Position numbers and translations under genes: made by a program. From Candidatus Harrisonbacteria bacterium RIFCSPHIGHO2_02_FULL_42_16 (GTDB lineage Bacteria > Patescibacteriota > Minisyncoccia > UBA6257 > 02-FULL-45-10c): a stretch of DNA of 53,053 bases. Location: contig MHJG01000005.1 in NCBI GenBank assembly GCA_001818695.1, positions 1-53,053 on the forward strand. The letters are read 5' to 3'. This document shows positions 16,473 to 43,423 of this stretch, in pieces. Position 1 is the stretch's first letter. The number at the start of each line of letters is the position of its first letter. Under the pieces are notes generated by a model. The model did not search any database and had not been told where the DNA came from. It worked only from the letters and a program-made list of their open reading frames with translations.

Positions 16473-17587
16473 AAATTTTAATAGCTACCGGAATTTTTCC
16501 TCCGGATATCGGCGGACCGGCGTTATATAGCCAAAAATTAGCGGAAGAGTTTTCCAGCCGAGGTCTGGTGGTATCGGTAATTACTTATGGTAAAAATTTT
16601 TTTAAAAATAACGCTTATTTGATTAGTGGTGTATCTCGAAAGTGGCCATTTGGGCTTCGGCAGGCGATTTATTTTTTAAAATTATTAAATCAAGCCAGAA
16701 AATCTGATGTCATTTTGACTTTTGATTCTCTCGGCGCCGGATTGCCCGCTGTTATAGCCGGGAAATTATTCAATAAAAAAGTAGTTATCCGTTTGGGCGG
16801 CGACTTTTTATGGGAAAAATTTGTGGAATCCGGCAGGGGCAAAGTTACGATGGCAGAATTTTATCAAAAGAAGTTGCATCAAAGATTTATCATATTATTC
16901 CGTCTTATAATTTTTGCTCTGCAAAATACCGATAAAATTGTATTTACCACTGAATTTCAAAAAGGTTTATTTGTATCTTATTATGGATTAAGGCCAAATA
17001 AAGTTTTTATGATTAGAAATGTTTTTGAGAAAAAAAACGGCCAATTGCTGATTTATGATAATAATTTAAAAACCATTTTATGGGCGGGGCGATTTTTAAA
17101 ATTAAAAAATCTCGATTTATTATTGAGAGTTTTTAAGCGATTATTGGTTTATGATAAAAATTTAGTTTTGGAATTAGCGGGCGAAGGGCCGGAGCGCAGA
17201 ACGCTACAATTGACAGCTGATAATTTACAAGTGACAAATAATATAAAGTTTCTTGGTAAGTTAAGCGAATTCGAGTTAAAAAAGAAAATTATTAATTCTT
17301 ATTTTTGTATTTTGCCGTCTTTGTCAGAGGTGAGCCCCAATTTCGCTTTGCAGTGTTTGGCCTTGGAGAAGCCGATTATTCTTACCGAAGAAACCGGCCT
17401 AAAAGAGCAATTTCCCGGTTTGATGTATGCCGACCCTCAAAAAGAAGACAGTTTTTTTCAGTCCGCCTTACGATTATTAGACGCTAATTCGTATGATAAT
17501 TATCAGAAATTTATTTCCGATATCCATTATCAAAAAACTTGGCGGGATTTAGCCGATGAATATTTAAAAATTCTTGACCCTCACTAA
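16469..17587 (+). CDS. GT4-like glycosyltransferase with altered donor motif
   Basis: 372 residues, GT-B fold. The N-terminal FPPDIGGPALYSQKLAEE loop is typical of GT4. The C-terminal half has LWAGRFLKLKN, GEGPE and LPSLSEVSPNFALQCLALEKP. At the usual E-x7-E position the second Glu is Gln (E-VSPNFAL-Q), so donor binding may differ. A degenerate 7-nt array (17206-17240) codes LQLTADNLQVTNN after GEGPE. The start overlaps the previous gene by 4 nt; the end overlaps the convergent deacetylase fusion by 24 bp. Confidence 0.87.
   Translation: MKILIATGIFPPDIGGPALYSQKLAEEFSSRGLVVSVITYGKNFFKNNAYLISGVSRKWPFGLRQAIYFLKLLNQARKSDVILTFDSLGAGLPAVIAGKLFNKKVVIRLGGDFLWEKFVESGRGKVTMAEFYQKKLHQRFIILFRLIIFALQNTDKIVFTTEFQKGLFVSYYGLRPNKVFMIRNVFEKKNGQLLIYDNNLKTILWAGRFLKLKNLDLLLRVFKRLLVYDKNLVLELAGEGPERRTLQLTADNLQVTNNIKFLGKLSEFELKKKIINSYFCILPSLSEVSPNFALQCLALEKPIILTEETGLKEQFPGLMYADPQKEDSFFQSALRLLDANSYDNYQKFISDIHYQKTWRDLADEYLKILDPH
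17206..17240 (+). repeat. degenerate heptanucleotide array after the GEGPE motif
   Basis: ACAATTG, ACAGCTG, ATAATTT, ACAAGTG, ACAAATA. Period 7; units vary but the register holds. Confidence 0.75.
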
Positions 17588-19375
17588 ATACGCAGTTGCC
17601 AGCCAATTTAATTTGGAATCGGCCAAATTTTTTAATTTATCAGCTAATTTTATGGTCAGTTGCGGAAATAATCGGTCAAAGGGAAGGGGCGCCAGTTTGA
17701 AGTTGTAACCGGTGATTTCTTCTGTTTCCAGTCCGGCTTGCTCCAAAATTTCTTTAATTTGTTTTTTAGTATACTCGCGATGTTTAATCGGGTGGGTATT
17801 TTTACCGGATAAATTTTTAAATAATCCCCAAGGCAGCCCTATCGTTGCCATGAGAATTTTATTCCAGATTCGCCACGGGCTAAAATAATTTGGAAAAGAA
17901 ATAATTGCCTCCCCGTCTTTTTTTAGAACTCGTTTTATTTCTAATAACGCTTTTTCGTCGGTTTCCAAATATTCCAGCACCCCTAAGGCGGTTAGATAGT
18001 CATAATAATCGGACGGAGAATCAATATCTTCAATGTTTCCGGTTTTGGCGACTAAATCTCCATGCTTAAATCGCCTTTTTAATAACTCAATCATATTTGG
18101 CGCTATATCAATAGCGGTAATTTTGGCGCCTCTATTCAATAGTTCCTCAATTATTATTCCCGGACCGGAGCCGATGTCAAGGATTTTTTTACCCTGAACG
18201 TTTTTTAAAATATCAAGAGTCAGCCGTTTTCTTTCCCTGAATGAAAAGCCCTCGGGTGTCTCTTTGTAATATTCAGACAAATATGAGTCGGTATCTTTGT
18301 TAAAAAATTCTCCCGGATCCATTGATTTAATGCTTAGAGTATCTCTAATTAATTGCATATAGTTTCTTATTCCGCTAATAGTGATGCGAAAAAATATCAG
18401 ATTATCTGATTCGTCCAAGGAAAATCTCGGCAAGGAATAAGGGTTAAGTCCCGGCTTTATTGTTCCGGGAATAGTGGTCAGGGCGGCTATAAATCCTTCC
18501 CTTTTTAAAATTTCAATAATTTCTTCATTAAAGTCCTCTTTTTGGCCGTTGGGATAGGCAAAGATTTTTAAAATCCGGCCAATCTTCTGTTCGCATAAAT
18601 TATAGGACTCAATAATTTCCGAACTTATTTTTTCCGCGGGTAGTTTGGAAAGAATCGGATGAGATTTAGTGTGAGGGGCGAAGCCAATCCCATTTTTGGA
18701 CATTTCTTGGATTTGCTCCCAGGTTAATCCTTTATAAGGCGAAGCGCCGAAATCCCCTATTAATCTTTCCCCTAACTGATTTTCAATTTCAATCAGCAAA
18801 TTTTCTTTTTTTTCGTTATCAATATTTTTTAAATATTTTCTTATGGCGATGTCTGTTTTGCATTTATTTCTATGATTATCTGTTGGTAAATTACGGATTG
18901 CGCCGTTGATTTCCATAGTTAATGATTTTAAATTTGTATTGCTAATCGCGTATTCTAATCTATCAACCCAGAGGGGTTTTTGTTCGTCCACCAAATCAGT
19001 GGCTATGAATACCGTGGCCGGCAATTCAAGTTCTTTTAATATCGGAAAAGCGTGTTTATAGATATTTTCATATCCGTCATCAAAAGTTAGGGCCAGTATA
19101 TTTTCGGTTAACCTCTTTTTACTTTGATGAAGTTCTATAAGGGCAGACAGGGAAATAATTTTATAATTTCTTTTTAGCCAGATTAGCTGACTTTTGAAAT
19201 TTTTCGGATTGACGAATTTTTTTCTGTAATTAAAAATCCCCCCATTATTTATTTCCGGAGATATTCCATGGTAAAGAGCGATTGTGGCGGTCGGTCTGCG
19301 TATTTTCAAATAGATAATCGGAAGCCGCAAAAAATCCGCAAACCAGAACAGCATATATTTTAAAAATTTTCTCAT
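17564..19375 (-). CDS. polysaccharide deacetylase (NodB) - SAM methyltransferase fusion
   Basis: 603 residues. A membrane-proximal N-terminus (about 1-25) is followed by a CE4/NodB domain (about 30-330) with TFDDGYE (metal-binding Asp pair), HTKSHP (metal-binding His pair) and AYPNG. A class I methyltransferase follows (about 365-560) with the SAM loop ILDIGSGPGIIIEEL and a second acidic strand ITAIDIAPN. The first part would deacetylate N-acetylated sugars; the second would methylate an unknown acceptor, perhaps a glycan. Both sets of key residues are present, so both halves look active. No frameshift or stop separates them. It starts 23 bp from a divergent GT4 gene. Confidence 0.85.
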   Translation of the reverse strand: MRKFLKYMLFWFADFLRLPIIYLKIRRPTATIALYHGISPEINNGGIFNYRKKFVNPKNFKSQLIWLKRNYKIISLSALIELHQSKKRLTENILALTFDDGYENIYKHAFPILKELELPATVFIATDLVDEQKPLWVDRLEYAISNTNLKSLTMEINGAIRNLPTDNHRNKCKTDIAIRKYLKNIDNEKKENLLIEIENQLGERLIGDFGASPYKGLTWEQIQEMSKNGIGFAPHTKSHPILSKLPAEKISSEIIESYNLCEQKIGRILKIFAYPNGQKEDFNEEIIEILKREGFIAALTTIPGTIKPGLNPYSLPRFSLDESDNLIFFRITISGIRNYMQLIRDTLSIKSMDPGEFFNKDTDSYLSEYYKETPEGFSFRERKRLTLDILKNVQGKKILDIGSGPGIIIEELLNRGAKITAIDIAPNMIELLKRRFKHGDLVAKTGNIEDIDSPSDYYDYLTALGVLEYLETDEKALLEIKRVLKKDGEAIISFPNYFSPWRIWNKILMATIGLPWGLFKNLSGKNTHPIKHREYTKKQIKEILEQAGLETEEITGYNFKLAPLPFDRLFPQLTIKLADKLKNLADSKLNWLATAYLVRVKNF

Positions 19376-19398: not shown

Positions 19399-20616
19399 AT
19401 GTCAATTATTATGAAAAATTATACCAATGAAACGGCTTGGGGTCAAAATATTAATATCCTTATTATTGGCACGGACGACGGTATTTTTAAATCCAATTCC
19501 GCCGTGCGAAAAAGGATTGTTGATTATGCCGCGCATTTTAAATCTTTTTATGTTATTTCCAAGACCCGCGATAAAGTATTGAGTGAAGATTTTGAAAGTA
19601 AGGCATTTTTTTACCCCGCATATTCATCGTCGTTTTTTTCTTTTATCAGGTCTTCTTATTTATTAGGTTCGGCTATTTTGGGTAAGGAAGGAAATTGGGT
19701 GATTAGCGTTGAAAATCCTTTTGAAACTGCATTGGTTGGCTGGCTGCTTAGCCGGAGATATAAATTTCCATTACAAATTCAGGTTCATACTGATATATTC
19801 AGCAATTATTTTTGGAAAGAGTCACTAAAAAATAAAGTTCGAGTTTTATTAGCGAAATTTTTATTGCCCCGAGCGGACGGTGTTCGCGTTGTTTCAGAGC
19901 GTATAAAACAATCTTTAATTACTCAATTACCTAATTACCAATTACTCCCCCTACGAGGGATCTCCCAAAGGGAGACAATTATTGTTTTACCAATTTTCGT
20001 TGATGTTAAAAAAATTCAATCAGCGCCTATAAAAACCGACTTGCATCAAAAATATCCTGATTACGATTTTATAATTTTAATGGCTTCCCGGCTGACTCGC
20101 GAGAAGAACATCGGAATTGCCATTGAAGCGATGAAGGAAATTCTAAAAAGAAAAAATCTAAACCCTAAACCCTCTACCTTAAACCCTCTATTATTGATTG
20201 TCGGCGATGGACCAGAGGGGCAGAAACTAGAATCTAGAATTCAGAATCTAGAATTAAGCACTAATATTAAAATAGAAAATTGGACAGACGATTTAATTTC
20301 TTATTATAAAACCGCGGATTTATTTTTATTGACTTCAAATTATGAGGGATATGGGCGTACCGTTGTAGAAGCAATGTCGGCCGGCTTGCCGGTAGTTATG
20401 ACGGATGTTGGGATAGCGGGAGAGCTTTTAATTGATGATTTGGATGGCAGAGTAGTTCCAGTAGGAAGTGAAAAAGCGCTTGCGGCGGCGATAATGGAAT
20501 TAAAAGAAAATTTCGCAAAAAAAGAAGAATTTAAGCAAAATAACTTGAAACTGCTGGAAAAATGGCCAACTAAGCAAGAATATTTGGAGAAATATAAACG
20601 ATCTCTTGAATTATAA
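19399..20616 (+). CDS. GT4 family glycosyltransferase
   Basis: 405 residues, GT-B fold, with MASRLTREKNIGIAIEAM, VGDGPEG and the E-x7-E motif EGYGRTVVE followed by DVGIAGELL. It is a cytoplasmic-face sugar transferase for envelope glycan. The reading frame contains a cluster of small inserts: AATTAC octamer repeats and a double palindrome (19917-19976, QLPNYQLLPLRGISQRET), a 7-nt array before VGDGPE (20158-20192, NLNPKPSTLNP) and another after it (20227-20254, LESRIQNLE). A -10 box TACTAT at 19384-19389 favours the start at 19399; ATG 19411 is possible. Its last 247 bp are duplicated at 21506-21752. Confidence 0.9.
   Translation: MSIIMKNYTNETAWGQNINILIIGTDDGIFKSNSAVRKRIVDYAAHFKSFYVISKTRDKVLSEDFESKAFFYPAYSSSFFSFIRSSYLLGSAILGKEGNWVISVENPFETALVGWLLSRRYKFPLQIQVHTDIFSNYFWKESLKNKVRVLLAKFLLPRADGVRVVSERIKQSLITQLPNYQLLPLRGISQRETIIVLPIFVDVKKIQSAPIKTDLHQKYPDYDFIILMASRLTREKNIGIAIEAMKEILKRKNLNPKPSTLNPLLLIVGDGPEGQKLESRIQNLELSTNIKIENWTDDLISYYKTADLFLLTSNYEGYGRTVVEAMSAGLPVVMTDVGIAGELLIDDLDGRVVPVGSEKALAAAIMELKENFAKKEEFKQNNLKLLEKWPTKQEYLEKYKRSLEL
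19917..19976 (+). repeat. AATTAC repeats followed by a double palindrome, in frame
   Basis: AATTAC at 19917, 19925, 19933 and 19940 (8, 8, 7 nt apart), then CCCT-ACG-AGGG (19949-19959) and TCTCCC-AAA-GGGAGA (19961-19975). The double hairpin has the same layout as 29780-29808, with paired base changes in the stem. Confidence 0.8.
20158..20192 (+). repeat. heptanucleotide array (CTAAACC type, 5 units)
   Basis: CTAAACC, CTAAACC, CTCTACC, TTAAACC, CTCTATT. It encodes NLNPKPSTLNP just before VGDGPE. Confidence 0.88.
20227..20254 (+). repeat. heptanucleotide array (CTAGAAT, 4 units)
   Basis: CTAGAAT, CTAGAAT, TCAGAAT, CTAGAAT. It encodes LESRIQNLE, directly after GDGPEGQK. Confidence 0.9.
20365..20611 (+). 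repeat. 247-bp direct repeat, copy 1 (GT4 3' end)
   Basis: Aligns without gaps to 21506-21752 (offset 1141). It includes a run of about 95 bp with a single mismatch; the ends have diverged more. Confidence 0.9.
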
Positions 20617-20734
20617 AAAGATAAGGTAATCGTTTGCGCGAGATGAGCAATCTTTTAGAAAAAGATTGAACTATTATACTTCCGCGTAAAAATTCTTTAT
20701 TAGAGATTTTTTAAGCTAGGAAATTTGGAGCGAT

Positions 20735-20763
20735 TTGACAGATGTTATTTTTTCTGTTAACAT
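20735..20763 (+). promoter_or_regulatory. sigma-70 promoter of cassette 1
   Basis: TTGACA (20735-20740), 17-nt T-rich spacer, TAACAT (20758-20763). It is preceded by GA, as in cassettes 2 and 4. The ATG at 20764 abuts the -10 box and would lie upstream of the transcript start. Confidence 0.8.
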
Positions 20764-20790
20764 ATGCCAAGTAGTACATTCTCAATAGAA

Positions 20791-20797
20791 AAGGAGG
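20791..20797 (+). promoter_or_regulatory. strong ribosome binding site deciding the start at 20803
   Basis: AAGGAGG, 5 nt before ATG 20803. This and the promoter position exclude the longer frame from 20764. Confidence 0.85.
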
Positions 20798-20802
20798 TAG
20801 TT

Positions 20803-21393
20803 ATGGGATTAGAACACGCTTATGAGCTAGTGGGGGCTGTTACGATATTTTTTTACTTTTTAATTCCGCTGCTTTTGCAAGTTTTTGGAAGGGACATTCT
20901 AAATTGGTGTTCAGATTATATTTCATTGTACTTTGGAAAATCTATTGAGAAATTCATTGCGGTGGCTAAGAAGCGAGGATATAGCGAGGTTACTGTTAAA
21001 TTATCTTGTATTTGCTATAGCGGAGGATTTGCTGATATAGGAGCTGGAGACGAATCACATTTTTATGTTGATCTTGTGGCTGGCACTATGAAATGGAGGG
21101 TGTGCCATATAGTTTCCCAAGAGTGGATTGATTTGCGCGGACCAGCCCAGATTGCTGCACTTCGTTGTTGGAGAAATATTGTTGATGTTTTTGAACTATT
21201 GATTTGTGCTGGATTTAAGATAAAGATAGATGGGGGTAGGAATGAAATAGTTTCGTATAGCGAAGCGCAAAATCTAGTCACTGAATACGAATTGAATGTT
21301 CCAAAGTTTTTAGAAGAAAATAATATTTCAGAAAAAAGAGCGGCTAATTTGGTGAAAACAAAATTAGCGTTACGACGACAGATTCTTAGATAA
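20803..21393 (+). CDS. cassette 1: membrane-anchored protein of unknown function
   Basis: 196 residues from the SD-backed ATG. One hydrophobic segment (about 8-26) is followed by a soluble domain of about 165 residues containing Cys, Trp and Gly-rich strands (for example LSCICYSGGFADIGAGD). I recognise no family or catalytic motif. It stands alone with its own promoter, SD and terminator, between the two copies of a 247-bp direct repeat. The SD and leader differ from the leaderless style of surrounding glycosyltransferase genes, which suggests acquired DNA. Confidence 0.75.
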   Translation: MGLEHAYELVGAVTIFFYFLIPLLLQVFGRDILNWCSDYISLYFGKSIEKFIAVAKKRGYSEVTVKLSCICYSGGFADIGAGDESHFYVDLVAGTMKWRVCHIVSQEWIDLRGPAQIAALRCWRNIVDVFELLICAGFKIKIDGGRNEIVSYSEAQNLVTEYELNVPKFLEENNISEKRAANLVKTKLALRRQILR

Positions 21394-21402
21394 TAGTAGA
21401 CG

Positions 21403-21429
21403 AGCTGCTCTCATGGGGGCAGCTTTTTT
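21403..21429 (+). terminator. intrinsic terminator of cassette 1
   Basis: Stem AGCTGC/GCAGCT with a 10-nt loop, followed by TTTTTT. Confidence 0.8.
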
Positions 21430-21496
21430 ATTAAAGAAATACAACACTTTTGTTTTTTAGAACTGGTGTTAAAATGAGTATTATGTTTAAACCTAA

Positions 21497-21787
21497 ATGG
21501 CTGTCGTAGAAGCAATGGCGGCTGGTTTGCCGGTGATTATGACTGACGTTGGGTTGGCAGGAGAGCTTTTAATTGATGATTTGGATGGCAGAGTAGTTCC
21601 AGTAGGAAGTGAAAAGGCGCTTGCGGCGGCGATAATGGAATTAAAAGAAAATTCCGTTAAAAGGGAAGAATTTAAGCAAAATAACTTGAAACTGCTGGAA
21701 AAATGGCCGACTAAACAAGAGTATTTGGATAAGTATAGAAATTCTTTAATAACGATTGTTCAAACTATGAAATCTTATGTGATTTGA
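21497..21787 (+). pseudogene. truncated GT4 glycosyltransferase (3' fragment)
   Basis: 96 codons matching the last quarter of the GT4 gene at 19399, from the E-x7-E region onward (VVEAMAAGLPVIMTDVGLAG to KWPTKQEYLDKYRNSL). The acceptor domain and most of the donor domain are missing. No SD precedes its ATG. It is either a broken tandem copy whose 5' part was replaced by cassette 1, or a duplication made when the cassette entered. Its stop codon overlaps the -35 box of cassette 2. Confidence 0.85.
21506..21752 (+). repeat. 247-bp direct repeat, copy 2
   Basis: The second copy, within the GT4 fragment. The repeats bracket 20612-21505, which holds cassette 1. Confidence 0.9.
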
Positions 21788-21812
21788 CATTATTGATTTT
21801 TTTTGCTACTAT
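21784..21812 (+). promoter_or_regulatory. sigma-70 promoter of cassette 2
   Basis: TTGACA (21784-21789), 17-nt T-rich spacer, TACTAT (21807-21812). The -35 overlaps the TGA of the GT4 fragment. An SD-like AGAGGAG (21841-21847) sits just before the ATG. Confidence 0.8.
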
Positions 21813-21849
21813 ATAATATAGTAAATTCCCAAAAGAAGAAAGAGGAGAA

Positions 21850-22197
21850 ATGAAATCAGACAAAAAGAAGTTGAGTGAAAAGCGAGACATTTTATCAAAT
21901 ATATTATTCATATTAATAAGATTTGATTTGCTATCAGTCTTCAAAAAATCGGTTAAGGGACAAGTCCTTTTAATGAATATACTATTATCTCTTCCGTGGA
22001 TTCTTGCAGTTAGCATTGCTTTATTTACTTGGTTTTTTGGATCAAGGGGTGTCGTATCGGCAAAGGATTCACGAGACTTAGCAGATATGTCAATTGGTTT
22101 AGGTTTGTGTGTATTCTTTTGGACATTTCTCTTAGTTCGATTGACAATTTACGAATCTTTCAAGGTTAATATCGGTCCCAGCACTTTTGAATCTTAA
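21850..22197 (+). CDS. cassette 2: small two-pass membrane protein, unknown
   Basis: 115 residues. A charged N-terminus (about 1-15, many Lys) is followed by a possible amphipathic region and two clear membrane segments (about 45-65 and 80-100). No family is recognised. It has its own promoter, SD and terminator. It lies between the GT4 fragment and the IS481-like element and is probably acquired with cassette 1 in the same hot spot. Confidence 0.65.
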   Translation: MKSDKKKLSEKRDILSNILFILIRFDLLSVFKKSVKGQVLLMNILLSLPWILAVSIALFTWFFGSRGVVSAKDSRDLADMSIGLGLCVFFWTFLLVRLTIYESFKVNIGPSTFES

Positions 22198-22205
22198 AAA
22201 TTGTA

Positions 22206-22240
22206 AAAAACCCCCCCCATGGTTCGCCCAGGGGGTTTTT
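22206..22240 (+). terminator. intrinsic terminator of cassette 2
   Basis: AAAAACCCCC arm pairing with GGGGGTTTTT, with A-run and T-run on the two sides, so it could act in both directions. Confidence 0.85.
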
Positions 22241-22260
22241 CTTTATAAAAATATCAATAA

Positions 22261-23391
22261 TGCATAACCTCAGATACATTCTGGACTCTATGAAGCCTTA
22301 GCTTTATGGAGTTTTTTAATCGAATTCACTCAAAATATACCGGCATCAGAGGGTTTATCACCGTATACAATGACGCGATACAATATGGGTATATGATTAC
22401 CCAACAAGCGCAGGAGAAGGCGCGTATCTTGGTCTTTTGGGAAAAGCACGGCCTTCAAGCGACCCTCGATGCTTTTCCCGTCAAAAGGTCGACACTTTAC
22501 ACCTGGAAACAGACCTGGATTGCGGGAGGGAAAAAGCTTGAAGCGTTGAACCCCAAGTCCCGACAACCCAAGACGAAACGCAAGCGATTATGGCCTGCCC
22601 CCATCATCGCGGAAATTCAACGACTCCGGAGTCGCGAAGTCCATCCGAATCTTGGGGAAAGGAAGCTATCGAAAGAGCTTGCCGTGTTTTGCGAGGCACG
22701 CAACCTGCGTTGTCCAAAGCCCGCAACAATTGGGCGTCTGATCGCCGACCTCGGCGGTCTTCGCGCGGCGCCGGTCAAGGTGTCGCATTTTGGCAAAATC
22801 AAAAAGGTTAATCGCCGCGCCGTCCTCAGAAAACCTAAACAATTCAAGGCAACGCATCCCGGCCACTGTGTGGCATTTGATACGATTGAGATCTTTATTC
22901 GCGGTATGCGTCGCTATGTCATCACTGCCACCGACCTATATGGGCGTATGAGCTTTGCATGGGGAACGGCGTCGCACGCCTCGCATGCGGCGCAAGAGTT
23001 CTTTGAGAGGTGCGAGCGCGTCCTCCCCATGCCGATGGAGTACGTCTTAACCGACAATGGTTCAGAATTCAAGAAAGATTTTGACATTGCGCTCCGGAAC
23101 GCTCATCTCACGCACTATCATACGTATCCCAAGACACCCAAGATGAATGCTCATGCGGAACGATTCAACCGAACGATTCAAGAAGAGTTTGTGGACTTCA
23201 ATTATGAACTACTTGCGACCGATATTGATGCATTTAACCGCAAGCTCATGGATTGGCTCATCTGGTACAATACCGAGCGTGTGCATTACGCATTCAACAA
23301 TCAATTGTCCCCAGCGCAATATCTGTTATCCTATTATCAACAATCGTCGAGACAAACTGCTTCCGAGTCCAGAGTATGGTGCGGTTATACA
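22261..23391 (+). mobile_element. complete IS481-like insertion sequence, 1131 bp
   Basis: Imperfect terminal inverted repeats: left TGCATAACC...TCTGGACTC (22261-22288), right complement TGTATAACC...TCTGGACTC (23365-23391). A 5-bp target duplication AATAA flanks it (22256-22260 and 23392-23396). The TG[C/T] ends and the single DDE transposase fit the IS481 family. GC content is visibly higher than around it, suggesting fairly recent arrival. It landed between the cassette 2 terminator and the toxin-antitoxin promoter. Confidence 0.85.
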
Positions 23392-23400
23392 AATAATTGA
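22393..23400 (+). CDS. IS481-type DDE transposase
   Basis: 335 residues from the ATG at 22393 (MITQQAQEKARILVFW); an in-frame ATG at 22306 would add 29 residues. An N-terminal helix-turn-helix (LDAFPVKRSTLYTWKQTW) is followed by an rve/DDE integrase core: first Asp in VAFDTIEIF, second in LTDNGSEF, Glu in NAHAERFNRTIQEEF. All three catalytic residues are present, so it may be active. TACAAT at 22379-22384 suggests a leaderless transcript. The frame reads through the right terminal repeat, and the last two Asn codons and the TGA stop lie outside the element, in the target duplication and flank. Confidence 0.9.
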   Translation: MITQQAQEKARILVFWEKHGLQATLDAFPVKRSTLYTWKQTWIAGGKKLEALNPKSRQPKTKRKRLWPAPIIAEIQRLRSREVHPNLGERKLSKELAVFCEARNLRCPKPATIGRLIADLGGLRAAPVKVSHFGKIKKVNRRAVLRKPKQFKATHPGHCVAFDTIEIFIRGMRRYVITATDLYGRMSFAWGTASHASHAAQEFFERCERVLPMPMEYVLTDNGSEFKKDFDIALRNAHLTHYHTYPKTPKMNAHAERFNRTIQEEFVDFNYELLATDIDAFNRKLMDWLIWYNTERVHYAFNNQLSPAQYLLSYYQQSSRQTASESRVWCGYTNN

Positions 23401-23424
23401 TATTTTAATTCAGTGTGTTATCAT
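23397..23424 (+). promoter_or_regulatory. toxin-antitoxin promoter next to the IS end
   Basis: TTGATA (23397-23402), 16-nt spacer, TATCAT (23419-23424), 6 nt before the ATG at 23431. It starts one base after the IS target duplication, so the IS missed the promoter narrowly. Confidence 0.5.
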
Positions 23425-23430
23425 ACTAAT

Positions 23431-23652
23431 ATGACCGTTGTGACGATTCTAAAAGAAACAATTAAAAATCAAGAGTTGGTGGCTATACCCAGAAAAGAAT
23501 ACGAAGCGTTTTCGCGATGGCAAAAGATGTTTAAAATTTTTAAACCGACTGCCAAAGATAAGGCCGAACTTAAACATGCCCGTAATGATTATAAGGTTGG
23601 ACGGTTTATGACTATCAATGAACTTAAGCGGAAATTGGCAGGTAAGAATTAG
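23431..23652 (+). CDS. antitoxin of a RelBE/ParDE-like pair
   Basis: 73 residues from the ATG at 23431. The N-terminal part (TVVTILKETIKNQELVAIPR then KEYEAF) resembles the DNA-binding segment of Phd/RelB-type antitoxins. The charged C-terminal half would wrap the toxin. It ends 35 nt inside the toxin gene, the usual order for type II pairs. Autoregulation through its own promoter is expected from the family. An in-frame TTG upstream is less likely because it lies in the promoter. Confidence 0.7.
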   Translation: MTVVTILKETIKNQELVAIPRKEYEAFSRWQKMFKIFKPTAKDKAELKHARNDYKVGRFMTINELKRKLAGKN

Positions 23653-23887
23653 AGAAATTGTTTATAAACAATTGGCTCGATTTCCCGTCAAAGATCGGGA
23701 GCGTTTATTGCGCGCCATTGATGGGTTATCAGCCAATCCTTTTATTGGGGATATTCAAAAGATGGGCGGAGAAGAAAATGTTTGGCGAAGACGCATAGGT
23801 TCTTACCGAATTCGTTATGAAATATACGTCCAGGAGAGGGTTATTTATGTTTTTTTCGTAGAACGTCGGACTTCAAAGACATATTAG
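23618..23887 (+). CDS. RelE/ParE-family toxin
   Basis: 89 residues. The body has the RelE/ParE layout: helical IVYKQLARFPVKDRERLLRA, then GLSANPF, then the strand block WRRRIGSYRIRYEIYVQE and VIYVFFVERRTSKTY. Basic and aromatic residues on the last strands are the usual active-site or binding surface. It acts as an mRNA interferase or gyrase poison depending on subfamily, which I cannot settle by eye. The start at 23618 overlaps the antitoxin by 35 nt in another frame. Confidence 0.8.
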   Translation: MNLSGNWQVRIREIVYKQLARFPVKDRERLLRAIDGLSANPFIGDIQKMGGEENVWRRRIGSYRIRYEIYVQERVIYVFFVERRTSKTY

Positions 23888-23902: not shown

Positions 23903-25567
23903 ATGAAAGAAATTTTTGAAAATTTTTCCCAATCGAAATGGCTTCTTATTTATATATTAGCTTTTGCCTTTTTAGTTAGGGTGGCGGGTATTGGCTATGG
24001 CCTCCCGCTTTGGCTAATTGATGATGAACCGCCGTTTACTTTGGCTGCTTTAAAAATGATTCAACTGAAAACCTTACTGCCAGCATCTTATTTGGCGGAT
24101 TTTCAAACAGTTTTGTATTACCCCCCGTACCTTTCTTATTTGTATCTTTTACCATTTTCTATTTTACTTGGATTCAAGTATTTATTTTTTAGCGGCGGCA
24201 GGGAACAATTTATTTATTACCTTACCGGCGATTTGTCGCACTTTTTTCTTATCGCGAGATTTTTGAATGTTTTAACGGGGGTTGCTTCAGTTTATTTGTT
24301 GTATCGGATTGGGAAGAAAATTTTCCAAAATGAACCGATTGGCTTACTTTCGGCTTTTTTCTTATCCACTAGCTTATTTCATATTCTTATGTCGGCTAAT
24401 GGCAGGCATTGGTTACCTGTTTCTTTTTTTACGATTTTAATATTATGGCTTTTAACTTTGGACTGGGAATTTCAAAAACGATATTTTGCGGCGATTTTGG
24501 CTGTTGGAATTGGGATGGGAGTCAGCCCGATTAACGCGTTTCTGCTGATATTTATTGCCGGCTGGTATTTATTTTATGAACGAAGAAGATTGCGGGATTT
24601 GATTAGGGAAAAATATTTCTATTGGGCATTGGTTATTTTTATATTTTTAGCAATTTTGCCAGGAATTTTATATCCGCAAAGTTTTGGATTCCGCGGCGAT
24701 TTGACTTTTCAGGAAACAAAATCCATTTTGGGAATTATCGCCAGCCCGTTTGTTTTTTTGAAGCCGGTAGCGTTATCCGAACCAATTTTAATGCTAGGCG
24801 TTTTGGTAGGATTATTATTCGCCTTTTTATACAAAAGAAATCTTTTTCTGCCGACGTTTCTTTTCCTGTACGCTTATAGCGCAACATTTTATCTTTTTTT
24901 CCGGTACGAGCACAGGTTTGCTTTGCCGCTTTTTCCGTTGTTGGCGATAATGGCTGCTTATGGAGCATTAGAAGTTTATAAAAGATTTACTGGCCGTATT
25001 TTTACTGCTCTTTTGATTCTGATTTTGGCTATGCCAGCAGTTTTTTCTTTGCGACTAAGCTATTTATTATATCAGAATGATTCGCGCAATCATTTAATTG
25101 AATGGGTTGAAACGAATATTCCGGCCAGTTCTAAAATATTGGTTTATGCCCGGCTGACTCGTTTGCCGGCCACTCCGGAAGCAATTAAAGAACAAAGGGC
25201 TATTGATTCTGGTTCATTAAGAAAGATTGATTTAGCGGAAGAAAATTTTCCTAAGCAACGAAGTTTTCACGCCTTGAATTTACACGATGTAAATAATCAA
25301 GAATTTTATGGTAATTTAGAAAAATATGCCAAAGACAATAGTTACCAATATGTTTTTTTTGGCGGAACGGATGTTAGAGAAGCGGAAAAGCTGAAGATTT
25401 TCCAAAAAATAGCGACAAAAGGAACGGCTCTAAAATCATTCGGAGAATTTCAAGAAGATTATTCGCCGTACATAGGCCAGCTTTTGGGAAATCCTTTGAA
25501 TTTGTTTAAAATTAAAGAATTCGGCCCACCGGTGGCAATTTATGAATTAACAATAAATAACAAATAA
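23903..25567 (+). CDS. GT39-like membrane glycosyltransferase
   Basis: 554 residues with about eleven or more hydrophobic segments, GT-C type. The first extracytoplasmic loop has the acidic motif WLIDDEPPFT at the place of the catalytic Asp-Glu. A soluble C-terminal tail (about 400-554) contains no motif I know. It probably uses a polyprenyl-phosphate sugar made by enzymes such as the GT2 that follows. The start lies 15 nt after the toxin stop. The last codons are the first unit of a 10-nt repeat array. Confidence 0.8.
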   Translation: MKEIFENFSQSKWLLIYILAFAFLVRVAGIGYGLPLWLIDDEPPFTLAALKMIQLKTLLPASYLADFQTVLYYPPYLSYLYLLPFSILLGFKYLFFSGGREQFIYYLTGDLSHFFLIARFLNVLTGVASVYLLYRIGKKIFQNEPIGLLSAFFLSTSLFHILMSANGRHWLPVSFFTILILWLLTLDWEFQKRYFAAILAVGIGMGVSPINAFLLIFIAGWYLFYERRRLRDLIREKYFYWALVIFIFLAILPGILYPQSFGFRGDLTFQETKSILGIIASPFVFLKPVALSEPILMLGVLVGLLFAFLYKRNLFLPTFLFLYAYSATFYLFFRYEHRFALPLFPLLAIMAAYGALEVYKRFTGRIFTALLILILAMPAVFSLRLSYLLYQNDSRNHLIEWVETNIPASSKILVYARLTRLPATPEAIKEQRAIDSGSLRKIDLAEENFPKQRSFHALNLHDVNNQEFYGNLEKYAKDNSYQYVFFGGTDVREAEKLKIFQKIATKGTALKSFGEFQEDYSPYIGQLLGNPLNLFKIKEFGPPVAIYELTINNK

Positions 25568-28734: not shown

Positions 28735-30099
28735 ATGAATTATAAAAAAGAAGATTTGATTTTAGTCATTGTCCTTTTAGGAGCCCTGTTTGTTTCTCTT
28801 TCTTATTCATTTTATTTTCGAATACCTCCGGCGGTTGATGCTCGTGCTTATAATAATATTGCCTGGAATATTGTTACAGGCAATGGTTACCGGGAAGACG
28901 TAAACGTGCCGATTGACGAAGACAATGCAATTATGAGAGTGGGTCCCGGCTACGAGTTTTTTTTGGCAGCTATTTATTATTTATTCGGGCATCATTATGA
29001 AGCAGTATGGGTTATTCAAGCGCTTTTAAATGTTTTATCGGCCGGACTAATTTTTTTGGTTACTAAGGAGATTTTCAAGGTTCACTGGAATTATCTTATT
29101 GGCGTAACCGCAGCGATTTTAATCGGTTTTTCTCCGGATTTGATTACGATGCAGGGCATGCTGATGACAGAGACATTAGGAGTTTTTTTAATTGTCCTTA
29201 CGGCATATTTATTTTTCCGATATTTTAATCAGACAGAAAAATCCGGATGGAAAATTTTTTCAATTGGGGTAACTTTGGCTTTGGCTTCCACCGTCAGGAC
29301 GCCGGCTCTTTTTTTGATTTTTCCGATAATTTGGGTTTTGTGGAAAAATAAAAACTGGAAACACCTCCTTTTTGTTTTTTTGGGGTTAGTTTTGATTTTT
29401 ACTCCATGGATTGCGAGAAATTATTATGTTTACCGGACTTTTGTTCCGACTAATTTGGCTTATGGAATTGATTTGGGTTCCGGGAATCATTTTGGCGCCA
29501 GTGGCGAACTGGAGCCGTATCCAGTCAATGATCTTTATTTGGAGCAGTATGGATTGGTGGAGGGAAGCCGTCGCCTTACTGGAGAAGCCCTACGATTTAT
29601 CGTTTTTAATCCTCTAGAATTTTTAAAAATCACTCTTTATAGAACCTCCATTTATTTTAGTTTTGCCCGGCCGACCGGTTTTTGGTTCCATCTTCATGGC
29701 TGGAGTAAGGCCATTACTCTTGTTTTTTCCGCAATTTATTCAGTAATACTTTTTGTTTTTGGATTTTGGGGTATTTGGTCCCTCTTCGCGGGATCTCGCG
29801 AAGCGAGACAGATTTCTTATATGAATGGCCGGGAAAAAACCCTCGCTAAAATTTTTTTGGCGATGCTGATTATGATGCCGCTCGCAGTGGTTGGTATTAT
29901 AGTAGAAACAAGATATAGGATGCTGGTTTACCCGTTTCTGGCGGTTTTTGCCGGTTATGGTTTGAGTGTGTTTTGGCAAAAGAAATTGGAATGGCAGCCG
30001 GCTTTAATTATCACATTTTTGCTTGGCGCCAATACTTTTTTTGATGTTTCAAGAAATCTGGGTCGGATTTTTGAACGAATTCAGGACTTGACAAAATAG
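28735..30099 (+). CDS. GT39-like membrane glycosyltransferase
   Basis: 454 residues, about ten membrane segments. The first outer loop reads PPAVDARAYNNIAWNIVTG, with a single Asp where other members have Asp-Glu; a second acidic cluster (VPIDEDNAIMRVGPGYEF) follows. It is shorter than the other copies and has no C-terminal soluble domain. The donor is probably lipid-linked. A double palindrome (29780-29808) codes LFAGSREARQ in a cytoplasmic or periplasmic loop. The -35 of the next promoter lies inside its last codons. Confidence 0.78.
   Translation: MNYKKEDLILVIVLLGALFVSLSYSFYFRIPPAVDARAYNNIAWNIVTGNGYREDVNVPIDEDNAIMRVGPGYEFFLAAIYYLFGHHYEAVWVIQALLNVLSAGLIFLVTKEIFKVHWNYLIGVTAAILIGFSPDLITMQGMLMTETLGVFLIVLTAYLFFRYFNQTEKSGWKIFSIGVTLALASTVRTPALFLIFPIIWVLWKNKNWKHLLFVFLGLVLIFTPWIARNYYVYRTFVPTNLAYGIDLGSGNHFGASGELEPYPVNDLYLEQYGLVEGSRRLTGEALRFIVFNPLEFLKITLYRTSIYFSFARPTGFWFHLHGWSKAITLVFSAIYSVILFVFGFWGIWSLFAGSREARQISYMNGREKTLAKIFLAMLIMMPLAVVGIIVETRYRMLVYPFLAVFAGYGLSVFWQKKLEWQPALIITFLLGANTFFDVSRNLGRIFERIQDLTK
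29780..29809 (+). repeat. in-frame double palindrome (LFAGSREARQ insert)
   Basis: CCC...GGG (29780-29792), then TCTCGC-GAA-GCGAGA (29794-29808); an alternative stem CTTCGCG/CGCGAAG also fits. It shares the frame GGGATCTC-C-AAG-GAGACA with 19956-19976, and the stem differs by paired changes. Confidence 0.82.
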
Positions 30100-30117
30100 T
30101 TCTAATCGTGCTATACT
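30088..30117 (+). promoter_or_regulatory. sigma-70 promoter of cassette 3
   Basis: TTGACA (30088-30093), 18-nt spacer, TATACT (30112-30117). It overlaps the end of the upstream gene. The SD AAGGAGG at 30229-30235 is 8 nt before the ATG. Confidence 0.85.
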
Positions 30118-30150
30118 TTATTTAGTAATTTAAGTTATTTACGGAGTTGG

Positions 30151-30215
30151 TTACAGCTTTTAGTCCATACAAATGTGGATTGAGAGCTGTAATTAACTGG
30201 CAGGAGTTCCGCCAG
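30151..30215 (+). promoter_or_regulatory. structured 5' leader of cassette 3
   Basis: A stem TTACAGCT/AGCTGTAA (30151-30158, 30185-30192) encloses TCCA/TGGA. A second hairpin CTGGC/GCCAG (30197-30201, 30211-30215) follows. The leader is about 120 nt in total. It could be a cis-regulatory RNA; no known class is recognised. Confidence 0.5.
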
Positions 30216-30243
30216 ACAAAGGAAAAACAAGGAGGATACGGCG

Positions 30244-30828
30244 ATGGCAAAGAAAATCGTCGTGGTTCCGGGCTTAACACCGGAATGGATGAGAAAGCGA
30301 AATGGCATCATGAAAGCGATCGATGAGCGGCTACTTCTTGGCTTGGAAAGGCCAGGAGCTGGTTTGACTCTTGATCAGCTACAGAAGCGGGCTGTGGAAG
30401 ATCGCTGCTTCTGCAAAAAGAAGGCAGAAGCGGCAGTCCTACCCTTCAAGCATGACAAGACACCAAATGGCTGGACGCTTTTGGAAGACACTCCGTTCGA
30501 CGGGAAGCAGTTCGTTCCAGACCTCGTGGAGTTCCTGAAGTCCGGCGAGTCCTCGGTCAACGGCGAGTTGATGAAGTGGAGAGCCAAAGAGCTCAATGCC
30601 CATCTCGGTCAGAGACACGCAGAGTACTTGCTGGAGCATCAAGAACTGATCACCAAGGAATGGCAAGGCAAGTATTACCTCGTCTTCCCTGGAACAGTCT
30701 GGCAGGACTCGATTGGCCTCCGCGACATACCGTACCTCGTCTGGAGCAGGGGCGAGTGGTACCTGAGCTTCCGCTGGCTTGAGGACGGCTGGATCGGCTA
30801 CGACCGTTTGGTTCGTCATCGCGGGTAG
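30244..30828 (+). CDS. cassette 3: soluble protein of unknown function
   Basis: 194 residues, no signal peptide or membrane segment. The N-terminus (MAKKIVVVPGLTPEWMRKRN) is basic, the centre is helical and charged, and the C-terminus is Trp/Tyr-rich (YLVWSRGEWYLSFRWLEDGW). No family is recognised. GC content and codon choice (CTC, GAG, CGC) differ sharply from the AT-rich neighbours. With its promoter, structured leader, perfect SD and 14-bp terminator it looks like imported DNA expressed independently. Confidence 0.72.
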   Translation: MAKKIVVVPGLTPEWMRKRNGIMKAIDERLLLGLERPGAGLTLDQLQKRAVEDRCFCKKKAEAAVLPFKHDKTPNGWTLLEDTPFDGKQFVPDLVEFLKSGESSVNGELMKWRAKELNAHLGQRHAEYLLEHQELITKEWQGKYYLVFPGTVWQDSIGLRDIPYLVWSRGEWYLSFRWLEDGWIGYDRLVRHRG

Positions 30829-30850
30829 GGTCACTGGGACCCTTGGGAAG

Positions 30851-30892
30851 ATGCGCTGCAAGAGCTTGCTCTTGCAGCGCATTTCTATTTTC
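30851..30892 (+). terminator. strong intrinsic terminator of cassette 3
   Basis: Perfect 14-bp stem ATGCGCTGCAAGAG / CTCTTGCAGCGCAT with a CTTG loop, then a T-rich tail. A small hairpin GGGTC/GACCC lies just before it. Confidence 0.9.
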
Positions 30893-30921
30893 AAATCAAT
30901 TTTTAATTGTTATTATGAATT

Positions 30922-31386
30922 TTGGATAGTAGATTAATATTTTGTTTGCGGCTACGGCTTCAAACAATCGAATTCCAAGGATTAAAAATCCTTAAAAATG
31001 AAACTACCCGGTACAGAGTATTAGAGAGTTTAAATACTCCGAATAAGATACAGCCCAGAGAGCATTCAATGGGCGGTGGAATGGATGGCGCGCTATATAT
31101 TAAGGAAAAATATTATATCAGATACGCTGATGATTTTGCTATCCTATCAGATAGCAGGAATTGACTGGAAGGTCTAACCCCTAAAATCCAGAGTTTTTTA
31201 TCCGAAAAACTTAAACTAGAATTGCATTCCAATAAATTATTCATTGAAACCATCTATTCCGGAGCGGATTTTCTTGGTTGGGTGAATTTTTCTGATCACC
31301 GGATATTATGAACCGCTACTAAAAGGAGATTGAGGCATGGGAATACGAATAAGATTAAAAAAGAGATTTTATTTCTTTCCAGATGA
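30922..31386 (+). pseudogene. remnant of a reverse transcriptase gene
   Basis: One frame, broken by stops at 31162, 31309 and 31384, still reads the RT signature YYIRYADDFAILSD (YADD at 31123-31134). The thumb-like region follows: FLSEKLKLELHSNKLFI, ADFLGWVNFSDHRIL and TATKRR, then HGNTNKIKKE. These match the order in group II-intron, retron or DGR-type reverse transcriptases; the thumb pattern recalls a group common in Patescibacteria (recollection). The part upstream of the YADD motif is shortened and unrecognisable. No ATG or SD is convincing. It is non-functional. It sits between a cassette and the rml genes. Confidence 0.82.
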
Positions 31387-31438
31387 TTTTATGCCACATA
31401 CGGGTATGACAATGAAGGTTTGATTAATGTTATATTTA

Positions 31439-42754: not shown

Positions 42755-42759
42755 CCGAT

Positions 42760-42788
42760 TTGACTTTGTTTTTGTTTTGAATTACAAT
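42760..42788 (+). promoter_or_regulatory. sigma-70 promoter of cassette 4
   Basis: TTGACT (42760-42765), 17-nt T-rich spacer, TACAAT (42783-42788), preceded by GA as in cassettes 1 and 2. Confidence 0.75.
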
Positions 42789-42820
42789 ACTTTCAGAGTT
42801 TCTTTGAGTATTGAATAGGG

Positions 42821-43423
42821 ATGGGAGACAAAATGGTGGATAAGCTCGAGTTGGTTAATCAGAAGGCGATTGAGATGTTTCCGGAGCTTTGGAAAGCGGT
42901 TTATCTTCGACATCTGAAGTCTAATATTTTAACTGGCGGCCACGATCCTTTTCATGCTGCTAGAGTTGGGCAATATGCTTTTGAGATCGCTGAGGCCCTT
43001 GAGGTGGCTCGGCTCGCTGGAGTAGCTGGCCTCTGCCATAATGCTGATCGGATATTGCAACACGATTTAAAAGTTAGTAGAAAGGATGTTCCGGAAGAGA
43101 TGGTTATCGTATTAGTCAATGAATGGCTTGATTTTACTGATTTATCTGAAGAGAAGCGGCGCCTGGTTGTTAGCGCGGTGCTTCTCCATAGTTTGCCGAA
43201 TGATCCTAATGACGGATTAGTGTTAGTGACTTTAAAAGATGCGGATCGTTTAGCTAATTTGGAACCGGACGTTATTATGCGAGCGGCGCAGTTTTATCCG
43301 GATTTTCCAGTAGTGGATCCAGTGTATTGGCTGTCTGAATCCAGCGGCTACTTTTCGCGAACCGCGATCGAGTGTTGGCTGGATGTCGGACTTTTGCCGT
43401 TTACGCCTCCGGAGGGAGGATAA
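42821..43423 (+). CDS. cassette 4a: HD-domain-like protein
   Basis: 200 residues; an alternative start at 42833 (MVDKLELVNQ) has a GGGAG sequence 5 nt upstream and may be the real one. Motifs GGHDPFHAARVGQYAFEIAE, LAGVAGLCHNADR and LKDADRLANLEPD follow the order of HD phosphohydrolases, with HN in place of the central HD. Activity on a nucleotide or phosphate ester is therefore uncertain. It is the first gene of a two-gene unit with the SDR, in a promoter-to-terminator cassette. Confidence 0.72.
   Translation: MGDKMVDKLELVNQKAIEMFPELWKAVYLRHLKSNILTGGHDPFHAARVGQYAFEIAEALEVARLAGVAGLCHNADRILQHDLKVSRKDVPEEMVIVLVNEWLDFTDLSEEKRRLVVSAVLLHSLPNDPNDGLVLVTLKDADRLANLEPDVIMRAAQFYPDFPVVDPVYWLSESSGYFSRTAIECWLDVGLLPFTPPEGG

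What the first reader, a model, noticed from the sequence alone, without database searches (positions are those of the whole stretch)
20365..21752. A cassette bracketed by 247-bp direct repeats of a GT4 gene end
20365-20611 and 21506-21752 align without gaps at an offset of 1141. The second copy lacks the first three quarters of the gene. Recombination between the repeats would delete cassette 1 cleanly and restore a single GT4 gene. The middle ~95 bp is nearly identical while the ends have diverged, which suggests later gene conversion.
Basis: partly seen in the sequence, partly recalled or inferred. Interest (0 to 1): 0.55.

Follow-up and report, generated by a model that had tools for sequence, protein, structure and literature searches.

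The report
Recombination scar joining two locus versions
A sugar-transferase gene in an ultra-small bacterium is followed by a cut-off second copy of its own end, most likely because two strain versions of the same spot, each with a different small extra gene, were spliced end to end; this is a known way for bacteria to pile up extra genes, seen here outside the toxin genes where it is usually described.

Summary
The repeat is real: 20362-20611 and 21503-21752 align without gaps at offset 1141, with a 94-nt core (20419-20512) holding one mismatch and diverged flanks. The interpretation needs changing. In four relatives of the family, one GT4 gene is followed within about 10 bases by a membrane-protein gene ('554'). 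The window carries 3.3 kb between these two genes, and no second copy of this GT4 was found in relatives. The DNA just before the second GT4 copy is not cassette: 21464-21502 reads as a GT4 stop plus the first seven codons of a 554-type gene, matching the GT4/554 boundary of relative L021. So 21502|21503 is an illegitimate junction: the start of one version's 554 gene fused to the tail of another version's GT4. The second tail's own changes are nearly all at third codon positions, so it looks like another strain's allele, not a decayed in-place duplicate. Both cassettes share a diverged leader (last GT4 codons, promoter, ribosome-binding site) but carry unrelated orphan genes. Best explanation: homology-facilitated illegitimate recombination stacked two alleles of a variable slot, as proposed for T6SS/Rhs orphan arrays. 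The genome encodes ComEC; no integron integrase or attC was found. Reads and donor alleles could not be checked.

The parts
19399..20616 (+). intact GT4 glycosyltransferase gene, 405 aa (version A)
   Evidence: Pfam PF00534 2.6e-36; single orthologue, about 46-59% identical, in most family genomes
20362..20611 (+). first copy of the repeat (end of the intact GT4)
20419..20512 (+). near-identical core of the repeat, one mismatch at 20475 (partner 21560-21653)
   Evidence: permutation p about 0.0017
20617..20686 (+). about 70 bases of unknown origin with a short hairpin; likely part of an earlier join
   Evidence: no second copy in the genome; hairpin not stronger than shuffles, z -1.4
20687..20802 (+). 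leader of cassette 1: GT4-like last codons (KNSLLEIF*), TTGACA-17-TAACAT promoter at 20735-20763, AGGAGG ribosome-binding site
   Evidence: homologous to 21736-21849, score 43-44 against shuffle maximum 20; promoter scan
20803..21393 (+). cassette 1 gene, orphan, 196 aa from the ATG after AGGAGG (209 aa from 20764), one predicted N-terminal membrane helix
   Evidence: no Pfam/NCBIfam/PHROGs/PADLOC match; no relative in 380 phylum genomes, viral contigs, plasmids or phages; hydropathy
21396..21432 (+). intrinsic terminator of cassette 1
   Evidence: -17 kcal/mol, z -5.3
21464..21502 (+). remnant of a GT4/554 boundary: GT4 stop codon, spacer, first codons of a 554-type gene (ATG TTT AAA CCT AAA TGG CT, MFKPKWL)
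   Evidence: aligns with the GT4/554 boundary of L021, score 22 against shuffle maximum 15, 0 of 2000
21502..21503 (.). illegitimate junction: 554-type gene start fused to GT4 tail
   Evidence: end of the L021 boundary match and start of the GT4 repeat
21503..21787 (+). second GT4 tail (version B): codon 322 to stop, open 96-aa frame from 21497
21736..21849 (+). leader of cassette 2: last GT4 codons, TTGACA-17-TACTAT promoter at 21784-21812, GAGGAG ribosome-binding site
21850..22197 (+). cassette 2 gene, orphan, 115 aa, hydrophobic segments (about residues 37-60 and 77-100)
   Evidence: no family match above cut-off; only weak chance-level matches in 368 class genomes; no match to the cassette 1 protein
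22206..22240 (+). terminator-like stem and T run after cassette 2
   Evidence: -15.8 kcal/mol, z -1.6
22245..23409 (+). IS481-family insertion sequence, transposase 22306-23400, 17-nt terminal inverted repeats
   Evidence: NCBIfam transpos_IS481 6.7e-47, below the 224-bit cut-off; inverted repeats
23413..23887 (+). likely toxin-antitoxin pair (79-aa partner and ParE/RelE-type toxin)
   Evidence: PF05016 9.9e-7 for the second gene; the antitoxin role is inferred from position
23903..25567 (+). intact 554-aa PMT_2-type membrane protein gene (native right neighbour of GT4)
   Evidence: PF13231 1.9e-10; directly after GT4 in L019, L021, L023, L028

Best explanation
The slot between the GT4 gene and the 554 gene of a polysaccharide locus is variable between strains. 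Version A held GT4 - leader - cassette 1 - 554; version B held GT4 - leader - cassette 2 (later or already with an IS481 and a toxin-antitoxin pair) - 554. DNA of one version entered a cell of the other, recombined by homology on one side (in GT4 or upstream, or alternatively in 554), and was joined illegitimately on the other side: codon 7 of A's 554 gene to codon 322 of B's GT4. This put both cassettes in series, left a 39-nt scrap of A's GT4/554 boundary and a 3'-terminal GT4 fragment of B, and created the direct repeat as a by-product. The near-identical core of the repeat is a conversion or heteroduplex tract between the two alleles, before or after the join. Shown: empty site in relatives, boundary scrap, allelic character of the tail, homologous leaders with unrelated genes. 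Inferred: entry by transformation, order of events, which version was resident.
For: In L019, L021, L023 and L028 the 554 orthologue follows GT4 within about 10 nt. 21464-21502 matches the L021 GT4 stop/554 start, 0 of 2000 shuffles as good, and only the true 554 start scores as high in the window scan. The intact 554 gene has a different N-terminus (MKEIFENFSQSKWL against MFKPKWL), so the scrap comes from another allele. Repeat differences lie at third codon positions (16 of 23, p 4e-4); tail-derived changes 7 of 8 at third positions. Leaders 20690-20797 / 21739-21845 are homologous though diverged (score 43, null maximum 20), with unrelated genes behind them. ComEC is encoded in this genome. 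The same mechanism was proposed for V. cholerae T6SS immunity arrays (PMC5361080), and competence for Patescibacteria is reported (PMC12455944).
Against: No strain carrying only version A or only version B was found; this is the only genome of its genus held, so both versions are inferred. The boundary scrap is 39 nt and matches one relative only (L019, L023 and L028 do not match). The 70 bases at 20617-20686 and the second GT4-like end at 20687-20717 need a further, unresolved event. Polarisation rests on few sites and distant relatives. A misassembly of two co-occurring strains cannot be tested without reads.
Confidence: 0.66

Rival explanations
1. In-place tandem duplication (unequal crossover between sister copies) of the segment from GT4 codon 322 to 554 codon 7, followed by replacement of the gene in one copy and gene conversion of the core.
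For: It gives the same junction, 554 start fused to GT4 tail, and explains homologous leaders and a converted core.
Against: The two leaders are only about 72% alike and the genes unrelated; the scrap of the 554 start differs from the intact 554 start; the tail changed almost only at third codon positions, which a useless fragment would not.
Confidence: 0.16
2. Assembly chimera: two co-occurring strains with different cassettes after GT4 were joined by the assembler.
For: The genome is a draft (25 contigs, 90.75% complete) and the contig holds two alleles of one locus side by side.
Against: The longest exact repeat is 56 nt, shorter than usual read lengths, and the actual junction 21502|21503 has no repeat that would let an assembler jump there.
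Confidence: 0.1
3. Site-specific integration of a cassette element into the 3' end of GT4 (integrase-type, with the repeat core as attachment site).
For: Insertion at a gene 3' end, intact upstream copy, identical core with diverged flanks.
Against: No recombinase between 20617 and 23902 other than the IS481 transposase; the native downstream sequence (554 start) lies before the second repeat instead of after it.
Confidence: 0.04
4. Decay of a full-length tandem second GT4 gene by internal deletion.
For: The tail is a GT4 fragment and 21475-21502 looks like a short start.
Against: That start is the 554 gene's, not GT4's; no second copy of this GT4 was found next to the first in relatives.
Confidence: 0.04

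Closest known systems
Displaced orphan module arrays of T6SS / Rhs / CDI loci formed by homology-facilitated illegitimate recombination (PMC5361080)
   Same: One intact upstream gene, a new module next to it, and a 3' fragment of the old allele of that gene displaced downstream together with its own module; scraps of flanking genes at the join.
   Different: The upstream gene is a glycosyltransferase, not a toxin; each module is one orphan gene with its own promoter and terminator; no immunity function is shown; only two modules.
Integron gene-cassette arrays
   Same: Small unrelated genes in series downstream of a fixed gene.
   Different: No attC-like site in 20601-22300, cassettes have their own promoters, no integron integrase above cut-off in the genome.
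Phage 'morons' (single-gene insertions with own promoter and terminator; from general knowledge)
   Same: Self-contained promoter - gene - terminator unit between two genes that are adjacent in relatives.
   Different: Not in a phage; both units share a homologous leader that includes the end of the host gene.

Membership tests
Displaced-module array by homology-facilitated illegitimate recombination | Homologous anchor gene shared by donor and recipient | tested here: met
   Two GT4 alleles, about 82-99% identical by segment
Displaced-module array by homology-facilitated illegitimate recombination | Non-homologous join at the other end | tested here: met
   554-type start fused to GT4 codon 322 at 21502|21503
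Displaced-module array by homology-facilitated illegitimate recombination | 3' fragment of the resident gene displaced with its own downstream gene | tested here: met
   21503-21787 followed by leader and ORF115
Displaced-module array by homology-facilitated illegitimate recombination | Strains with each module alone exist | tested here: inconclusive
   No other genome of the genus is held; the family lacks both cassette genes as far as searched
T6SS/Rhs/CDI orphan immunity array (as a function) | Modules are effector-immunity or immunity genes | tested here: inconclusive
   No family match for either gene; GT4 is not a toxin
Integron | Integron integrase in the genome | tested here: not met
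   Best match to TIGR02249 89 bits, cut-off 265
Integron | attC sites between cassettes | tested here: not met
   No RYYYAAC-N20-120-GTTRRRY in 20601-22300 on the plus strand
Site-specific integrative element at a gene 3' end | Element carries its recombinase | tested here: not met
   only an IS481 transposase, outside the repeats
Composite transposon | Bracketing repeats are insertion sequences | tested here: not met
   The repeats are GT4 coding sequence

The most novel reading that the evidence does not exclude
The space after this GT4 is a dedicated gene-swapping slot in Paceibacteria: a conserved leader made of the GT4 end plus promoter plus ribosome-binding site serves as the homology arm through which unrelated single genes are exchanged and stacked between strains, an integron-like function without an integrase, possibly for surface-related defence or immunity genes.
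Probability: 0.12. Interest if true: 0.6.

Novelty: new member of a known kind. Interest (0 to 1): 0.3.

Why it matters
It shows the likely signature of additive, partly illegitimate recombination between strain versions of a surface-polysaccharide locus in a 754-kb Patescibacteria genome, with scraps that let the join be read to the base. If confirmed, it means these reduced genomes gain single orphan genes by the same route that builds orphan immunity arrays elsewhere, and gives a search signature (gene-end fragment preceded by the start of the gene's downstream neighbour) for finding other such slots.

Tried and rejected
Cassette 1 protein searched in 17 family, 384 class and 380 phylum genomes, viral contigs, plasmids and phages: nothing convincing. 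Cassette 2 protein in 368 class genomes and viral contigs: only chance-level membrane-segment matches. AlphaFold of the cassette 1 protein without an alignment: mean pLDDT 50, too poor for a fold search. GT4 in viral contigs: none; GT4 in named genome contigs: one relative only, Candidatus Paceibacter DYGE01000002. A leader shared by the other small-gene units of the window (30070, 42740): not supported, scores within shuffles. Another copy of 20617-20803 in the genome: none. Integron and site-specific integration: rejected as above.

Full report
Observation. The direct repeat exists as described: 20362-20611 and 21503-21752, no gaps, offset 1141. Over 20362-20598 there are 23 mismatches in 237 (90.3%); the segments 20362-20424, 20425-20512 and 20513-20598 are 82.5, 98.9 and 87.2% identical. 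The 94-nt core 20419-20512 with one mismatch is more than random placement of mismatches gives (p about 0.0017; third codon positions only, p about 0.015). The second copy starts near codon 322 of a 405-codon GT4 gene (PF00534).

The empty site. The window lies in a 754-kb, 25-contig draft genome, the only genome of its genus held. Fourteen of 17 genomes searched in the family (own included) have this GT4 at E below 1e-45; one relative belongs to a record named Candidatus Paceibacter. Fetched neighbourhoods compared with the window show that in L019, L021, L023 and L028 the orthologue of the window's 554-aa membrane protein gene (23903-25567) follows GT4 within about 10 nt. In the window 3.3 kb separates them: cassette 1, the GT4 tail, cassette 2, an IS481-family element and a probable ParE-type toxin-antitoxin pair. 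No second copy of this GT4 stands next to the first in the relatives; L020 and L022 have it fused to a different GT4.

The junction. Immediately before the second GT4 copy lies TGGTGTTAAAATGAGTATTATGTTTAAACCTAAATGGCT (21464-21502). It aligns with the end of GT4 and start of 554 in L021 (TGATGTTAAAATAAGCTCATATGTTTAGTCCAAAATGGCT): score 22 against a maximum of 15 in 2000 dinucleotide shuffles, and in a scan of the window only the true 554 start scores as high. It therefore reads as a GT4 stop codon, a short spacer and seven codons of a 554-type gene (MFKPKWL), cut at 21502 and followed at 21503 by GT4 codon 322 onward. The intact 554 gene of the window starts differently (MKEIFENFSQSKWL). The left edge of the repeat is thus a join between two versions of one locus, not the edge of a cassette.

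The second tail is another allele. Differences between the copies fall on third codon positions (16 of 23, p 4e-4). Set against L019, L021 and L023, 7 of 8 changes assigned to the tail are at third positions, against 5 of 13 for the intact gene; 4 are ambiguous. The tail keeps relatives' residues A327, R375 and N401, where the intact gene departs. A fragment left by in-place duplication and free to decay should not look like this; a functional allele of another strain, cut recently, should. The numbers are small and the relatives distant, so this is support, not proof.

Leaders. 20690-20797 and 21739-21845 are homologous (score 43, null maximum 20; still 21 against 15 without the promoter part). 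The stretch holds the last GT4 codons, a TTGACA-17-TAnnAT promoter and a ribosome-binding site. Behind it the two genes are unrelated and without known relatives. Each is followed by a stem and T run, strong for cassette 1 (z -5.3), weaker for cassette 2 (z -1.6). So both cassettes descend from the same position after GT4, in alleles that had diverged.

Mechanism. One allele (GT4 - cassette 1 - 554) and the other (GT4 - cassette 2 - 554) were joined in series by a non-homologous join at 21502|21503, with homologous recombination presumably resolving the other end, in GT4 or in 554. This is homology-facilitated illegitimate recombination, proposed for Vibrio T6SS immunity arrays, where a new module displaces the old allele's 3' end and its downstream gene (PMC5361080). 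DNA uptake is plausible: ComEC is present, and competence for Patescibacteria is reported (PMC12455944). Which allele was resident cannot be told. The near-identical core may be a conversion tract formed at the join, later between the repeats, or an older shared segment.

Rivals and limits. Tandem duplication gives the same junction but not the diverged leaders, unrelated genes or different 554 start. Site-specific integration fails because the native downstream start lies before, not after, the second repeat. Integron membership fails on integrase and attC. A strain chimera in assembly cannot be excluded without reads, but the longest exact repeat is only 56 nt and there is none at the junction. 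The 70 bases 20617-20686 and the further GT4-like end at 20687-20717 suggest an earlier, similar event that I could not resolve.

Noticed in passing
17564-19375 (-): An inverted 603-aa polysaccharide deacetylase + methyltransferase gene sits between the 372-aa GT gene and this GT4; in L019, L021, L023 and others those two genes are adjacent, so GT4 is flanked by insertions on both sides.
   Followed up: partly
30070-30895: Another self-contained unit: TTGACA-17-TATACT promoter overlapping the end of the upstream gene, ribosome-binding site, 194-aa gene of 55% GC (window 40%), strong terminator (z -6.4). Relatives in 44 of 286 genomes of the class (own included), no Pfam or PHROGs match.
   Followed up: partly
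30922-31430: Broken reverse-transcriptase fragment (YIRYADDF motif), perhaps from a diversity-generating retroelement or group II intron.
   Followed up: no
42755-43423: HD-domain-like 200-aa gene with its own TTGACT-17-TACAAT promoter inserted in the polysaccharide locus, 47% GC.
   Followed up: no
L020 5796-8045 and L022 5882-8107: In two relatives this GT4 is fused in frame to a second, different GT4 resembling the window's 40247-41356 gene.
   Followed up: no
20362-20611: In the repeated segment the intact GT4 has more amino-acid changes against relatives than the truncated tail (5 of 13 assigned changes at third positions, against 7 of 8), which may mean relaxed constraint on its C-terminus.
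   Followed up: partly
20617-20717: About 70 unexplained bases followed by a second GT4-like C-terminal end (KNSLLEIF*) right after the intact GT4 stop; looks like an older join of the same kind.
   Followed up: partly
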